From a virus: a stretch of 28,211 nt of DNA. Within the stretch, counting starts at the first letter, position 1. Each line of letters opens with the position of its first letter. Below are positions 19,966 through 25,535 of the stretch, in pieces. Position numbers and translations under genes: made by a program. The stretch spans positions 1-28,211 of the IMG/VR virus record IMGVR_UViG_3300017957_000051. The stretch is one strand, 5' to 3'. The notes below the pieces were generated by a model. The model was not told the origin of the DNA. It was given only the letters and a program-made list of their open reading frames with translations, and ran no database searches.

Positions 19966-20790
19966 ATGGCTAGACGAGTAAAATATCTTAACAACAAAGA
20001 CATGTTGGCTGAGATACACAAAAGTAAAATGAATTACAGCAGTTTTATTGAACCAGAATTTGCATACTATGATATCATTTTACCAAGTATTGATAAAATT
20101 AACATTAGAACTATTGCAGAAGCAAAACGTAACAAAGCAAAAAAACTTTCAACTATTGCTTATGAAGAAGCAAAAGCAGAAGGCAAACGTGTAAAAGTTG
20201 CCGACTGTGAAATTGACTATAAAACTATTGAAAAAAATGAATTGATTTTTAGAATCATGACATTTGATCACATTCCTGATGAACCAGGACGGAAAAAGAA
20301 TCCAAAAACAGTTGCAGATCGCAAAGTTAAGTTGCCGTTTCCACCTTTCCAGCATTACAAATTTGACGATGACGATAATTTGGTATGTGTCGGCAAGAGT
20401 CATTGGACAGGTGGTATGGAAAATGGTTACTTTAGTCTCGATCATGGCAGAGCAACAAATGAACTTGCTAAAATGTGGATGAAACTTGTTGATAGATATG
20501 CAACAAGAGGCAATGTGCGTGGTTACACATACAATGACGAAATGAAAGGACAAGCAATCCTTCAATTATCACAAATTGGTTTACAATTTGACGAATCAAA
20601 ATCTCAAAATCCTTTTGCTTATTACACTGCCGCTGTTACTAACAGTTTTGTACGTGTTATTAACCTTGAAAAACGAAATCAAAACATTCGCGACGACATT
20701 TTAGAAATGAATGACTTAAATCCAAGTTATACAAGACTACATCAAGGCGAATGGGAAGCAGCAGTTCGCAGAGAAGCCGAAAAAGAATAG
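19966..20790 (+). CDS. 55: Late-transcription sigma factor gp55
   Basis: This 274-residue protein is the phage sigma factor that directs RNA polymerase to TATAAATA late promoters. The C-terminal half carries the signature: a KMWMKLVDRYATRGN segment near residue 171, RGYTYNDEMKGQAILQL at about 185-200, FDESKSQNPFAYYTAAV at about 206-222, and NSFVRVINLEKRNQNIRDDI after that. This is a sigma70 region-2-like core. It is longer than T4 gp55 (185 residues). The N-terminal 120 residues (YLNNKDMLAEIHKSKMNYS and a Lys-rich helix) are, as I recall, usual in marine T4-like phages. It has its own sigma70-type promoter and ends just before the promoter for gp47. Late promoters found elsewhere in the window are its expected targets. 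Confidence 0.92.
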   Translation: MARRVKYLNNKDMLAEIHKSKMNYSSFIEPEFAYYDIILPSIDKINIRTIAEAKRNKAKKLSTIAYEEAKAEGKRVKVADCEIDYKTIEKNELIFRIMTFDHIPDEPGRKKNPKTVADRKVKLPFPPFQHYKFDDDDNLVCVGKSHWTGGMENGYFSLDHGRATNELAKMWMKLVDRYATRGNVRGYTYNDEMKGQAILQLSQIGLQFDESKSQNPFAYYTAAVTNSFVRVINLEKRNQNIRDDILEMNDLNPSYTRLHQGEWEAAVRREAEKE

Positions 20791-20844: not shown

Positions 20845-21858
20845 TTGTTTAACAAAGCAGCAGTTTTTACCGACATACACTTTGGTATGAAAGGTAATTC
20901 TCGCATTCATAACCAAGATTGCGAAGAATTTGTCGATTGGTTTATTGAAACCGCACAAGAACACGGTTGTGATACTGCAATTTTTTGCGGTGATTGGAAT
21001 CACAACCGTAACAGTTTAAATTTAACAACCATGGATGCAGGTATCCGCAGTTTAGAAAAACTAGGTGCAGCATTTGATAAGTTTTACATGTTTGCTGGCA
21101 ATCACGATTTGTATTATAAAGACAAACGTGATGTTAAAAGCACAGAATTTGCTAGACACATTCCAGGTGTAACTGTTGTGGAAGAAATTACACAAATTGA
21201 AGATGTTGCACTTGTTCCGTGGATGGTAGGCGACGAATGGAAAAAAGTTGCTGCTATGGATTGCAAATACATGTTTGGACACTTTGAATTACCAAGTTTC
21301 CTTATGAATGCTATGGTAAGGATGCCCGATCACGGCGAATTAAAAGCAGAAAACTTGACAAAACCTGAGTATGTGTTTACCGGTCACTTCCATAAACGAC
21401 AAAGTCAGAAGAATGTACACTACATTGGTAATGCATTTCCACACAACTATGCAGATGCATGGGACGACGAACGTGGTATGATGATACTCGATAGAGAAAA
21501 TTCAGCAGAACCAATGTATGTTAACTGGGCAGACTGTCCTAAATACCGCACAGTTAAACTATCACAGTTGATTGATGAGAAAGACACACTGATCAAAAGT
21601 AAAATGTATCTAAGAGTTACACTAGACTTGCCTATCAGTTTCGAAGAAGCAACTTTTATCAAAGAAACATTTATTAAAGAATATAATTGTCGTGAGATTA
21701 CACTTATTCCACAGAAGAGTCTCGAAGAAATAAGCACAGATCTTGACATTGAACAATTTGAAAGTGTTGATCAGATTGTTAGCAACGAAATATTAGCAAT
21801 TGACAGTGAAAACTTCAACAAGTCCTTGCTATTAGACATATACAACGGGTTAGAATGA
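20845..21858 (+). CDS. 47: Recombination nuclease subunit gp47 (SbcD/Mre11-like)
   Basis: The nuclease half of the gp46/gp47 complex, which resects DNA ends for recombination-dependent replication. At 337 residues it matches T4 gp47 (339). All metallophosphoesterase motifs are present: D10-x-H12 (TDIHFG), GDWNHN with D50 and H53, GNHD at 85-88, GHFELP, and GHFHK with H181 and H183. The start is a TTG: the first in-frame ATG would remove D10 and H12, and GGAG lies 8 bases before the TTG. It overlaps gp46 by 4 bases, so the two subunits are probably made in step. Confidence 0.95.
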   Translation: MFNKAAVFTDIHFGMKGNSRIHNQDCEEFVDWFIETAQEHGCDTAIFCGDWNHNRNSLNLTTMDAGIRSLEKLGAAFDKFYMFAGNHDLYYKDKRDVKSTEFARHIPGVTVVEEITQIEDVALVPWMVGDEWKKVAAMDCKYMFGHFELPSFLMNAMVRMPDHGELKAENLTKPEYVFTGHFHKRQSQKNVHYIGNAFPHNYADAWDDERGMMILDRENSAEPMYVNWADCPKYRTVKLSQLIDEKDTLIKSKMYLRVTLDLPISFEEATFIKETFIKEYNCREITLIPQKSLEEISTDLDIEQFESVDQIVSNEILAIDSENFNKSLLLDIYNGLE

Positions 21859-23633
21859 TTAAAATTAAAGATCTTACAGTAAAAAACTTTATGAGTGTGG
21901 GTAATGTTACCCAAGCAGTTGACTTTGATGAAGATCAACTAACTCTAGTGCTTGGTGAAAACTTGGATCAAGGTGGTGACGATAGTGGATCACGAAACGG
22001 TACAGGTAAAACAACCATTATTAACGCATTATCTTATGCATTGTACGGTCAAGCACTAACAAACATTAAACGTAACAACTTGATCAACAAAACCAACAGC
22101 AAAGGCATGTTGGTTACACTCAACTTTGAGAAAAACAACATACAATACCGCATTGAACGTGGTAGATCACCTAATGTACTCAAGTTTTACGTAAACGAAC
22201 AAGAACAATCACAAGAATTTGACGATAATAGTCAAGGTGATAGTCGTAAAACACAAGAAACTATTAACGATCTGCTGGATATGAGCCACGATATGTTTAA
22301 ACATATTGTAGCATTAAACACATATACAGAACCGTTCTTAAGTATGAGAACTAACGATCAACGTGCTATTATCGAACAGTTATTAGGTATAACAATACTA
22401 TCTGAAAAGGCAAACTTGCTAAAAGAACAAGTAAGAGTTACTAAAGATGCTATTACTACTGAAAATATGCGCATTGAAGCCATTAACAGCAGTAATGAAA
22501 AGATTCAAACCAGCATTGACCAACTTGTTAATAGACAAAAAGCATGGAAAAGCAAACAAAAGACTGATATTGAACGTTTAGAAAAGGGTATCAGTGAGTT
22601 AGAACAGTTGGATATTGAAAAAGAATTGGATAGCCACGACAAACTGCAAAATTGGAACGAACTTAACACTGCTATTGCTGCTTTAAACAAAGAAAAAGCA
22701 ACATTAGAGAGTGCTTTGATGCGAGCAACCAAGAGTGTAGAGAAAGCAGAGAAAGATATTGCTGATCTAGACGATGCAACTTGTTATACATGCGGTCAAG
22801 CACTACATGAAGACAAAAAAGCAGAGATTCTTGCAACAAAGACCAAAGATCTGCAAGATTCAATGGCATATCAAACAGAAGTTGGCGAAAAATACCGTAC
22901 AGTGCTGAATAATTTAGATGATATCGGTGATATCAACGGTAGACCGTCTACATTCTATGAAACTGCTAAAGAAGCATATGAACATAGAAACAACGTAGAT
23001 AACTTGCACAAAACTTTGGTAAGTAAAACGCAAGAAGAGGACCCGTACCAGGCTCAAATTGACGATTTAACTAACACAGCATTACAAGAAGTTGATTGGA
23101 CCACTGTAAATCAGTTGAACAATCTAAAAGAACACCAAGAGTTTCTCCTTAAACTCCTGACTAACAAAGATTCTTTTATTAGAAAGAAGATTATTGACCA
23201 AAACTTGGCATATTTGAATGCAAGGCTAACATATTACTTAGATAAAATAGGCTTACCACATCAAGTAGTGTTCCAAAACGACCTAGCAGTTGAAATTACA
23301 CAACTTGGACAGGACTTGGACTTTGATAACTTGTCAAGAGGCGAACGCAACAGACTAATACTTGGTCTTTCGTTTGCATTCCGTGACGTTTGGGAATCAT
23401 TGTATCAAAATATCAACTTGTTGTTCATTGATGAGTTGATCGATAGCGGTATGGACACTGCTGGTGTGGAAAATAGTATAGGCATACTGAAGAAAATGAC
23501 TAGAGAGCGTAACAAAAATGTGTTCTTGATTAGTCACAAGGATGAATTGGTAGGCAGAGTAAACAATGTGCTTAAAGTTATTAAAGAAAATGGCTTTACC
23601 ACATACGAAAATGATATTGAAATTGTAGAATGA
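21855..23633 (+). CDS. 46: Recombination nuclease ATPase subunit gp46 (SbcC/Rad50-like)
   Basis: The ATPase partner of gp47, 592 residues (T4 gp46 is about 560). Walker A is at residues 45-54 (GSRNGTGKTT). Two coiled-coil arms flank a zinc hook, C310-YT-C313. The ABC signature LSRGERNRL is near 493, Walker B LLFIDELIDSG is near 522, and the H-loop is ISHKDEL. The family-typical extended loop before Walker A (LDQGGDDSG) is present. The gene overlaps gp47 upstream and the next small gene downstream by 4 bases each, which makes one translation-coupled unit. Confidence 0.96.
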   Translation: MIKIKDLTVKNFMSVGNVTQAVDFDEDQLTLVLGENLDQGGDDSGSRNGTGKTTIINALSYALYGQALTNIKRNNLINKTNSKGMLVTLNFEKNNIQYRIERGRSPNVLKFYVNEQEQSQEFDDNSQGDSRKTQETINDLLDMSHDMFKHIVALNTYTEPFLSMRTNDQRAIIEQLLGITILSEKANLLKEQVRVTKDAITTENMRIEAINSSNEKIQTSIDQLVNRQKAWKSKQKTDIERLEKGISELEQLDIEKELDSHDKLQNWNELNTAIAALNKEKATLESALMRATKSVEKAEKDIADLDDATCYTCGQALHEDKKAEILATKTKDLQDSMAYQTEVGEKYRTVLNNLDDIGDINGRPSTFYETAKEAYEHRNNVDNLHKTLVSKTQEEDPYQAQIDDLTNTALQEVDWTTVNQLNNLKEHQEFLLKLLTNKDSFIRKKIIDQNLAYLNARLTYYLDKIGLPHQVVFQNDLAVEITQLGQDLDFDNLSRGERNRLILGLSFAFRDVWESLYQNINLLFIDELIDSGMDTAGVENSIGILKKMTRERNKNVFLISHKDELVGRVNNVLKVIKENGFTTYENDIEIVE

Positions 23634-23882: not shown

Positions 23883-24308
23883 ATGAGTTGGACATACAAA
23901 GGTAAACAAATTGACACAATACCAGATGAGTACGAAGGATTTGTTTACTTGATTACCAACTTAACAGACAATCGCAAGTACATAGGCAAAAAATTAGCAA
24001 AGTTTAAAACAACCAAGCCACCACTAAAAGGCAAAAAGAACAAACGCAGAGGCCACAAAGAATCAGATTGGCAAACTTACTGGGGAAGTTCAGATAAACT
24101 TAATGAAGATGTACAAAATCTAGGCGAACAAAACTTTTCTCGTGAAATACTTTACTTTTGCAAAAGCAGAGCAGAAATGAGTTACATTGAAGCACGAGAA
24201 CAATTTGATAGGCGTGTATTAGAAACAGATGAATATTACAACGGCATCATCAATGTAAGAGTTGGTGGTTCACAAAAACTACGCCAGGCACTACTAGAAC
24301 ACAAATAG
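23883..24308 (+). CDS. GIY-YIG endonuclease (SegE-like)
   Basis: A 141-residue protein with a GIY-YIG nuclease core: FVYLITN near residue 21 stands for GIY, and KYIGKK near 34 for YIG. A very basic loop (GKKNKRRGHK) and SDWQTYWGSSDKL follow, then NFSREILYFCKSRAEMSYIE and a YNGIINVRVGG end. The overall pattern resembles the SegE-like family of T4-type phages. T4 Seg proteins are free-standing homing endonucleases. The protein consists almost only of the nuclease domain, with no obvious extra DNA-binding domain, so a repair or host-DNA role is also possible. It closes the gp47-46 transcription unit and is followed immediately by the large unannotated RNA-like region. Confidence 0.8.
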   Translation: MSWTYKGKQIDTIPDEYEGFVYLITNLTDNRKYIGKKLAKFKTTKPPLKGKKNKRRGHKESDWQTYWGSSDKLNEDVQNLGEQNFSREILYFCKSRAEMSYIEAREQFDRRVLETDEYYNGIINVRVGGSQKLRQALLEHK

Positions 24309-24784
24309 GCTACATAACGGACCCAATTGACGAAAGTCCTCCAAAATCCAGCCGAGGTAAGGCTCGTAGCCGGTGGTATGGAGTGTCCGCGTGAAGAAGT
24401 ATACGATAGGCTTTAAAAGATTTGGGCTCTGTGAAACAGATACAACCCAAGGGTAAGTGTTTTCGCTTGTTAGGGAATAACTGCCTTCCGTTGATATGAC
24501 GAATCTAGAGTAGGGGGATACAGGTCAACCGCCTCCGACAATAGGTTGCAAACTATATTTTAAGAATATAGTTTTGAAACTATTGAATCTCTTATAACAA
24601 GATGGCTGAAGCGACTCGAATAATGCGCAAAACCATGTTCGCCCGGCAACGGGCGAATTATGACTTCACAATCTGAATAATACTAAATGCATATGCTTAC
24701 GCATATGCCTTAACTAGTACTATTATCACAAACAAATAGTTCGTGTTGAGCGATAGCGATAACACAGATGAACGTTAGTTCATC
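24309..24784 (+). ncRNA. Candidate large structured RNA (no family recognised)
   Basis: No gene fits in 24309-24833; the sequence is unlike its coding neighbours and folds extensively. One 60-base segment, 24361-24420, has 30 G+C in an otherwise AT-rich genome. Visible stems, all read on the plus strand: CGGAC 24318-24322 with 24385-24389; GAC-GAAA-GTC at 24429-style loop position 24329-24338; CTCC 24339-24342 with GGAG 24380-24383, enclosing CGAG/CTCG at 24353-24356 and 24363-24366; TTGGG 24422-24426 with CCCAA 24446-24450, enclosing TCTG/CAGA; AAGTG/CGCTT at 24455-24468; a 10-bp stem at 24550-24574; an 8-bp GC-rich stem with a GCAA tetraloop at 24638-24657; and a long hairpin at 24676-24724. 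I tested by eye for tRNA, tmRNA, RNase P RNA, 6S and group I intron core motifs and found none. The strand is inferred from the flanking genes. The ends are uncertain. Confidence 0.5.
24767..24784 (+). terminator. Hairpin before the late promoter, possible weak terminator
   Basis: GATGAAC and GTTCATC form a 7-bp stem with a GTTA loop, followed by CTTAAATG. The weak T-run makes termination uncertain. Its left arm (GAAC, 24770-24773) can alternatively pair with GTTC at 24739-24742, so two folds compete. It lies 8 bases upstream of the late promoter and would separate the upstream RNA from the next gene. Confidence 0.35.
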
Positions 24785-24791
24785 TTAAATG

Positions 24792-24799
24792 TATAAATA
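24792..24799 (+). promoter_or_regulatory. T4-type late promoter (TATAAATA)
   Basis: A perfect 8 of 8 match to the T4 late consensus, 35 bases upstream of the ATG at 24834, giving an expected leader of about 28 bases that contains AAGGA. It marks the following gene as late and gp55-dependent. Confidence 0.85.
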
Positions 24800-24833: not shown

Positions 24834-25535
24834 ATGCAAGTATATCAGATTATTGCTGAGGATCATGAAATTGATGAAGCAATTCCTTTTACTAAAAAAG
24901 CACGTATGATGAAGCAAGCCAAAAAGGCTGCTAAGGGTGCTACTAAAGATGAAGCACGTCAGATAGAAGTAGAACTACTGACTTATCTAAAAACATCAAA
25001 ACAGAAAGCAACTGCTGATGCTGTTTTGAAATACTTTGATCAAAAAGGTTTAGGTAATGTTGCTGCACCAATTGTCAAACAGTTCAAGACTAAAGGAAAC
25101 AAAGCAGCAGATAAAAGTGCTGCCCGTCAAGCAAAAGCACAGGCAGCAGGTGCAGCCGCAGCAAAACTAGGCGGCATGGCTAAAGTTGGCGCACAAAAAG
25201 CAGGTGCTGCAATTGGTAAAGCAGCAACAGCAGCAAAAAATGCAAGTGGTGTTGTTCCTGCAGGACAGTTGGGCGGAGCAAAGCCAACATTTAAAAGTGT
25301 AAGAGCAAATGCAAGCATGTACGAAGCAGAAGGTGAAGACATCTTGACAAAGCGTGAAGTGCGTAAAATTATCAGTGATGTTGTTGCAAAAGGTTACGGC
25401 GGCTCTGCTGGATTTGACAAGAGTAGATTTGCTCAAGACGAACCAAAAGCAAGTTTTAAGTCAAGTCAAACATCTCCTGATGTAGATGCAGCAATTGACA
25501 TGCTTACCAAAGCCGGTTACAAAATTAAAAAGTAA
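24834..25535 (+). CDS. Late-expressed basic Ala/Lys-rich protein, unknown function
   Basis: A 233-residue protein with a perfect late promoter and an AAGGA ribosome site. I do not recognise a family. The N-terminus (MQVYQIIAEDHEIDEA) is acidic, then residues about 20-85 are helical with many Lys. Residues about 85-145 are Ala/Lys/Gly-rich (AAAKLGGMAKVGAQKAGAA), resembling the composition of histone H1-like tails. The C-terminus is a more ordered block with ILTKREVRKIISDVVAKGYG and ends AIDMLTKAGYKIKK. Late timing and basic composition would fit an internal head or DNA-associated virion protein, or a prohead core component; that is inference. It ends exactly where the convergent gp51 gene ends, with no base between the two stop codons. 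Confidence 0.8.
   Translation: MQVYQIIAEDHEIDEAIPFTKKARMMKQAKKAAKGATKDEARQIEVELLTYLKTSKQKATADAVLKYFDQKGLGNVAAPIVKQFKTKGNKAADKSAARQAKAQAAGAAAAKLGGMAKVGAQKAGAAIGKAATAAKNASGVVPAGQLGGAKPTFKSVRANASMYEAEGEDILTKREVRKIISDVVAKGYGGSAGFDKSRFAQDEPKASFKSSQTSPDVDAAIDMLTKAGYKIKK

What the first reader, a model, noticed from the sequence alone, without database searches (positions are those of the whole stretch)
24309..24784. Large structured RNA candidate that matches no family I know
About 475 bases without a credible gene contain at least nine local stems, several with GNRA-type loops (GAAA, GCAA), nested in arms that look like multi-way junctions. GC content rises locally in an AT-rich genome, which is typical of structured RNA. 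It sits between a GIY-YIG endonuclease and a late promoter. Its size is in the range of the large ornate phage RNAs such as GOLLD and ROOL, but I cannot align it to them by eye.
Basis: partly seen in the sequence, partly recalled or inferred. Interest (0 to 1): 0.78.

Follow-up and report, generated by a model that had tools for sequence, protein, structure and literature searches.

The report
New phage RNA with twin repeats
Uncultured marine and freshwater phages carry a roughly 375-letter folded RNA that matches no known family and holds two copies of a seven-letter word that mutate together, so the two copies almost certainly do the same paired job, with a partner still to be found.

Summary
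The finding is real and better than claimed. Window 24309-24684 (+) encodes a large structured RNA. It matches none of Rfam's 4,227 families and nothing among 50,697 phage records at blastn sensitivity. IMG/VR yields over 200 distinct relatives, marine and freshwater, mostly at one locus (gp55-gp47-gp46-[GIY-YIG]-RNA-baseplate hub). They have two alternative pseudoknotted cores (A, the window's; B) between exchangeable 5' modules and analogous 3' ends. A 64-pair model on 31 diverse A sequences keeps 88% of pairs (39-50% when slid), and 42 pairs show compensatory changes. Type B behaves likewise.

The surprise is in the 3' end: a 7-nt direct repeat (window GAATAAT, 24618-24624 and 24675-24681), ACUC[N7]R...AUCU[N7], found in 191 of 192 relatives and perfect in 187. 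The 192nd, in an unrelated phage, has its own 10-nt pair. Of 54 substitution events in the repeat, 49 hit both copies identically on the same branch, while the flanks (CUC versus UCU) never change or converge. No complement occurs in the RNA or the phage genes tested. Gene conversion, tmRNA, a known intron and a decayed gene are excluded or disfavoured. Best reading: both loops pair with one trans partner (inferred, about 40%); the RNA family itself is near certain.

The parts
24309..24395 (+). 5' module of the RNA; P1 24318-24322/24385-24389, P2 24339-24343/24379-24383, P3 24348-24373 with hairpin 24353-24366
   Evidence: helices 1-4: 78-95% of cells paired, with compensatory changes; significant pair 24340-24382; replaced by other modules in B types and in L018
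24390..24405 (+). P4 hairpin CGU/ACG (weak support)
   Evidence: helix 5, 53% of cells paired
24422..24450 (+). P6 hairpin UUGGG/CCCAA with conserved loop CUCUGWGAAAMAG
   Evidence: helix 6, 94% paired; significant pairs 24424-24448 and 24423-24449
24452..24485 (+). P7 hairpin (GGUA/UGCC and UGUUUUC/GGGAAUA); its loop takes part in a pseudoknot
   Evidence: helices 7-8, 10 of 11 pairs with double changes
24466..24601 (+). P12 pseudoknot CUUGUU (24466-24471) with AACAAG (24596-24601)
   Evidence: helix 9, 77% paired; significant pair 24470-24597
24490..24529 (+). P8 pseudoknot GUUGAU (24490-24495) with GUCAAC (24524-24529)
   Evidence: helix 10, 99% paired but nearly invariant, so only weak covariation support
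24507..24592 (+). P9 AGAG (24507-24510) with CUCU (24589-24592), enclosing P10 and the variable hairpin
   Evidence: helix 11, 92% paired, all 4 pairs with double changes
24513..24536 (+). P10 hairpin GGGGG/CCUCC holding the most conserved stretch GGNTACAGGTCAACCGCCT (24516-24534)
   Evidence: helix 12, 100% paired; significant pair 24514-24536
24540..24585 (+). hypervariable hairpin cassette, from almost nothing to about 110 nt in relatives
   Evidence: alignments
24618..24624 (+). repeat copy 1, GAATAAT, preceded by ACTC (24614-24617)
   Evidence: identity covariation with copy 2; concerted substitutions
24638..24657 (+). P14 hairpin UUCGCCCG-GCAA-CGGGCGAA between the two repeat copies
   Evidence: helix 13, 96% paired
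24675..24681 (+). repeat copy 2, GAATAAT, preceded by ATCT (24671-24674); approximate 3' border of the conserved RNA
24689..24784 (+). poorly conserved 3' hairpins (24689-24708, 24743-24765, 24767-24784), probably terminator or processing signals
   Evidence: direct reading; variable in relatives
24792..24799 (+). T4-type late promoter TATAAATA in front of ORF 24834-25535
   Evidence: sequence; consensus known from T4
23883..24308 (+). GIY-YIG protein gene directly upstream (PHROG_447), a neighbour and not required
   Evidence: present upstream in 144 of 164 relatives

Best explanation
The locus makes a stand-alone or 3'-UTR-derived RNA of about 375 nt, read on the + strand in the same direction as the gp47-gp46 genes. 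A pseudoknotted core (type A here, an alternative type B in other phages) and a 5' module fold into a scaffold. The scaffold presents two largely unpaired copies of one 7-nt word, ACUC[N7]R and AUCU[N7], about 58 nt apart. Shown here: the fold, the family, and the concerted evolution of the two copies. Inferred: both copies base-pair with the same partner strand outside the RNA, such as a host RNA or mRNA, a remote phage transcript, or DNA. When the partner changes, both copies must change. The RNA would then act as a two-site guide, decoy or clamp for that partner during infection.
For: RNA family: compensatory changes on A (64 pairs, 42 with double changes, 88% of cells paired against 39-50% slid, 0/500 shuffles) and on B (88.5% against 35-47%, 16 pairs with double changes); tree-based null test. 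Strand: G-U far exceeds A-C on + (501 against 92 for A), with better consensus energy on +. Repeat: 191/192 cores, 187 perfect, spacing 50-68. 29 of 32 (A) and 20 of 22 (B) substitution events at positions 1-7 are the same change in both copies on the same branch, and flanking events are not concerted. The repeat columns covary by identity with E<0.05 in A. Both copies tend to be unpaired (0.67 and 0.63 against 0.42). No complement covaries inside the RNA, which points to an outside partner. The invariant flank differences are Y/Y (CUC/UCU) and in most sequences R/R at position 8, so one partner strand could pair both sites through G-U.
Against: No partner was found: antirepeat plus RRR is at control level in nine phage records apart from the repeats' own opposite strand, and no conserved gene carries it across five partial genomes with four different repeats. 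Position 8 is U opposite G in 23 A sequences, which no single partner base pairs. No transcript data were available.
Confidence: 0.4

Rival explanations
1. The two copies are processing or joining sites of a ribozyme-like RNA. Cutting at CUC|repeat-1 and UCU|repeat-2 and joining the ends would remove the roughly 58-nt hairpin segment without changing the junction, and identity would be needed because one guide pairs both sites.
For: Sites 1 and 2 have different invariant flanks (CUC, UCU) around a free but identical word, as donor and acceptor sites would. The RNA has a multi-pseudoknot, ribozyme-like core. Identity rather than sequence is kept even in an unrelated phage (L201).
Against: No guide complementary to the word exists in the RNA. 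No Rfam self-splicing or self-cleaving family matches. The one joined-form sequence searched for is absent from viral DNA contigs, which tests only DNA and only one sequence variant.
Confidence: 0.2
2. The two loops are a paired binding site for a protein (for example a phage RNA-binding repressor acting as a dimer) whose specificity drifts, so both sites drift together.
For: Two equivalent loops at near-constant spacing; position 6 is always A and position 5 always a purine.
Against: At least 20 different words including ACGAAAT, GTCGGAA, AGCTGAA and ACAGGAA; GAATAAT changes to GAATGAT in both copies between close relatives, which is fast for a protein to follow.
Confidence: 0.15
3. A cis-acting element: the structured 3' end of the gp47-gp46 transcript or the leader of the next (late) gene, controlling termination, decay or translation.
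For: It lies directly after the operon and before a late promoter, with hairpins at its 3' side.
Against: The downstream gene varies between phages while the RNA is kept. Relatives sit next to terminase or other genes. This does not explain the concerted repeat.
Confidence: 0.15
4. A DNA-level site: replication origin iterons, recombination sites or target-site duplications around a small insert.
For: Direct repeats sharing a 7-bp word resemble the overlap region of site-specific recombination sites.
Against: Compensatory pairing and a G-U bias fix the + strand as RNA. The repeats change in concert at positions 1-7 but not 8, and the flanks never homogenise. No excised form was seen for the one variant tested.
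Confidence: 0.07

Closest known systems
GOLLD and ROOL (large ornate phage-associated RNAs)
   Same: large, ornate, non-coding, carried by phages including lake phages, function unknown
   Different: no match to any Rfam model even at permissive thresholds; shorter (about 375 nt); two alternative cores; concerted direct repeat, which I know from neither
Two-piece (permuted) tmRNA of pelagiphages and OM43 phages (PMC9004378)
   Same: structured RNA in marine T4-like phages
   Different: no ARAGORN or Rfam tmRNA match; no conserved tag reading frame in the region
Group I introns with GIY-YIG homing endonucleases of T4-like phages
   Same: GIY-YIG gene next to a pseudoknotted RNA
   Different: no Rfam intron match; no interrupted gene; downstream gene varies; GIY-YIG absent from 20 of 164 relatives
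IS110 bridge RNA and RNA-guided transposon RNAs
   Same: paired guide-like loops within one structured RNA is the nearest idea for how it might work
   Different: no recombinase or transposon recognised near the locus; the loops are identical instead of addressing two targets
phi29 packaging RNA
   Same: phage RNA with two functionally linked loops that covary
   Different: pRNA loops are complementary to each other; these are identical

Membership tests
GOLLD, ROOL, OLE, HEARO and every other Rfam 15 family | covariance-model match at the gathering score | tested here: not met
   0 matches on the window and 13 relatives; permissive search gives only chance-like, mostly minus-strand hits
tmRNA | tRNA-like domain and tag frame | tested here: not met
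   ARAGORN 0 on the window and 16 relatives; no Rfam match
Group I or II self-splicing intron | conserved catalytic core recognised by the family model | tested here: not met
Group I or II self-splicing intron | in vitro splicing | not testable with these tools
   no transcript or bench data
tRNA array or isolated tRNA | tRNA gene called in the region | tested here: not met
   no tRNA called in the fetched stretches of five phage records
New structured-RNA class | compensatory base changes beyond what phylogeny gives | tested here: met
   (own R-scape-like test, not R-scape itself)
New structured-RNA class | expression as an RNA in infected cells | not testable with these tools
   no metatranscriptome or infection RNA-seq held

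The most novel reading that the evidence does not exclude
A previously undescribed class of phage RNA whose working part is a pair of identical programmable 7-nt seeds, held by interchangeable pseudoknotted scaffolds, that act on one co-evolving trans partner: an RNA-guided system of an unknown type.
Probability: 0.35. Interest if true: 0.92.

Novelty: categorically new. Interest (0 to 1): 0.82.

Why it matters
Large structured RNAs with strong covariation and no family are rare, and this one is common in uncultured aquatic phages and single-copy in the records checked. The concerted direct repeat is a precise clue to function: it says that some partner must see the same seven letters twice. 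That makes the long-open question of what large phage RNAs do testable, by swapping one or both copies.

Tried and rejected
Codon-plus-stop (bypass or tag) reading of the repeats: killed by ACGAAAT, GTCGGAA, ACAGGAA and AGCTGAA. Internal antirepeat or switch: no complement and no Watson-Crick covarying column. Partner elsewhere in phage genomes: none above control (incomplete genomes). Gene conversion: flanks CUC and UCU never mix and position 8 stays different while position 9 matches in A. DNA excision: the joined form of one repeat variant is absent. Pairing with phage tRNAs: no tRNAs called. Cultivated homologue: the A-core model finds nothing in the downstream-of-gp46 regions of Phosso, Deifobo or Atu_ph07; blastn against phage records finds nothing meaningful. 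GIY-YIG as a dedicated partner: missing in 20 of 164 relatives. Literature searches found no description; the library is open-access only.

Full report
Setting. The window is an unnamed virus record of T4-like type: gp55 (19966-20790), gp47 (20845-21858), gp46 (21855-23633), a small ORF, a GIY-YIG protein (23883-24308), the region in question, a late promoter TATAAATA (24792-24799) and an unassigned ORF (24834-25535), with baseplate genes on the minus strand. The region has no ORF of 50 aa or more, no tRNA or tmRNA, and no Rfam match.

Observation. GC is locally raised (43.6% against 35.9%). Folding energy is better than shuffles for the whole 476 nt (z -3.6 on +), but the core without the 3' hairpins gives only z -1.6, so energy alone is weak evidence. 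Comparative evidence was therefore sought.

Relatives. Searching IMG/VR with the neighbouring proteins gave 160 loci with a GIY-YIG match and 81 distinct downstream regions, most of them with about 400-550 nt before the next ORF. A and B differ in their core but share the position, a choice of 5' modules (L018 is an A core with a B-like 5' module; L111 and L113 are B cores with an A-like 5' module) and a 3' end of the same plan. Most relatives with enough flanking sequence keep the synteny gp55-gp47-gp46-(GIY-YIG)-RNA-orf64-baseplate hub. Divergent relatives (gp46 51-59% identical) keep it without the GIY-YIG gene. A few lie in other contexts: the ACGAAAT group, and L201 next to a terminase gene. 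Of twelve records searched with the A-core model, seven had exactly one copy, and the B-type records had none. No cultivated phage carries a recognisable copy; the closest gp46 proteins in isolates are at most 48% identical, in jumbo phages.

Structure. On 31 diverse A sequences a 64-pair model with two pseudoknots has 88.0% of cells paired (slid controls 39-50%), 42 pairs with changes on both sides, 316 such cells (slid 46-72) and a covariation score of 0.437 (slid 0.08-0.11), with 0 of 500 shuffles reaching any of these values. The model was drawn from these sequences, so the slid control alone flatters it. An independent test, an R-scape-like script with a substitution-shuffling null on a FastTree tree, gives E<0.05 for pairs 24424-24448, 24423-24449, 24470-24597, 24340-24382 and 24514-24536. 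Type B gives 88.5% paired against 35-47%, with 16 double-change pairs, and significant pairs for its pseudoknot helix and others. The plus strand is the RNA: in consensus helices G-U outnumbers A-C by 501 to 92 (A) and 1048 to 174 (B), and the consensus energy is better on +.

The direct repeat. In nearly every relative the 3' end reads ACUC[N7]R ... hairpin ... AUCU[N7]. The word is found in 191 of 192 cores with enough sequence, is perfect in 187, and has a spacing of 50-68 nt (median 58). The remaining case, L201, has its own 10-nt pair ATCATCAAGT with different flanks. Words include GAATAAT, GAATGAT, GGATGAA, AGATGAT, ACGAAAT, GTCGGAA, AGCTGAA, ACATGAA, ACATAAT, ACGTGAA, GTATGAA, GCATAAA and ACAGGAA. 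On trees, 29 of 32 (A) and 20 of 22 (B) substitution events at positions 1-7 are the same change in both copies on the same branch. Positions -3 to -1 never change, position 8 is never concerted, and beyond that changes are nearly all independent, except position 9 in A. This comb-like pattern is not what DNA gene conversion would leave. No complement of the word covaries anywhere in the RNA, and none was found above control in the phage genomes.

Interpretation. The simplest explanation of identity without an internal complement is that both copies meet the same partner outside the RNA. The flank differences (C/U, U/C, C/U and mostly G/A) are those that one partner strand could tolerate through G-U pairs, which is the basis for preferring a nucleic-acid partner. 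This is inference: the partner is unknown, position 8 is U against G in 23 A sequences, and no expression data exist. A processing or joining function of the two sites, a co-evolving protein, and a cis-acting role remain open.

Limits. The covariation test is my own approximation of R-scape. The genomes are fragments. The joined-form search tested a single sequence variant in DNA only. The literature library is open-access only.

Noticed in passing
L399:7410-8425 (Sinorhizobium phage Phosso) and L400:7186-8530 (Pseudomonas phage Deifobo, PA5oct-like): Cultivated jumbo phages have a 1-1.3 kb stretch without credible genes downstream of gp46; in Deifobo it lies before the baseplate hub, as in the window. 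Deifobo's folds better than shuffles (z -4.6 on +). It does not match the A-core model; it could be a different large RNA in a phage that can be grown.
   Followed up: partly
L185, L221, L428, L429, L431 (5' domain of type B): Some type B RNAs carry an insert with a tRNA T-arm-like hairpin (GGGTTCGAACC or close) in the 5' domain.
   Followed up: no
window 24540-24585 and the same place in relatives: Hypervariable hairpin cassettes, from almost nothing to about 110 nt; similar cassettes turn up in both A and B types, as if swapped as modules.
   Followed up: no
L406:1069-1440 (minus strand): A type A relative (105-kb record) carries manA and freshwater-2 RNA motifs next to each other.
   Followed up: no
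L394, L395 (Neomarinimicrobiota MAG contigs) and L396 (Gammaproteobacteria MAG): Bacterial genome bins hold phage-like contigs with the locus; L394 and L395 have a type B RNA, L396 a divergent A-like one with a GGTAATRAC repeat.
   Followed up: partly
L079:691-820: A third, A-like core subtype (GGTACCGGATAACCGCCTAC) with perfect repeats AGATAAT.
   Followed up: partly
L201:6890 and flanks: Type B RNA in an unrelated phage next to terminase genes, with a 10-nt repeat pair and no CUC/UCU flanks.
   Followed up: yes
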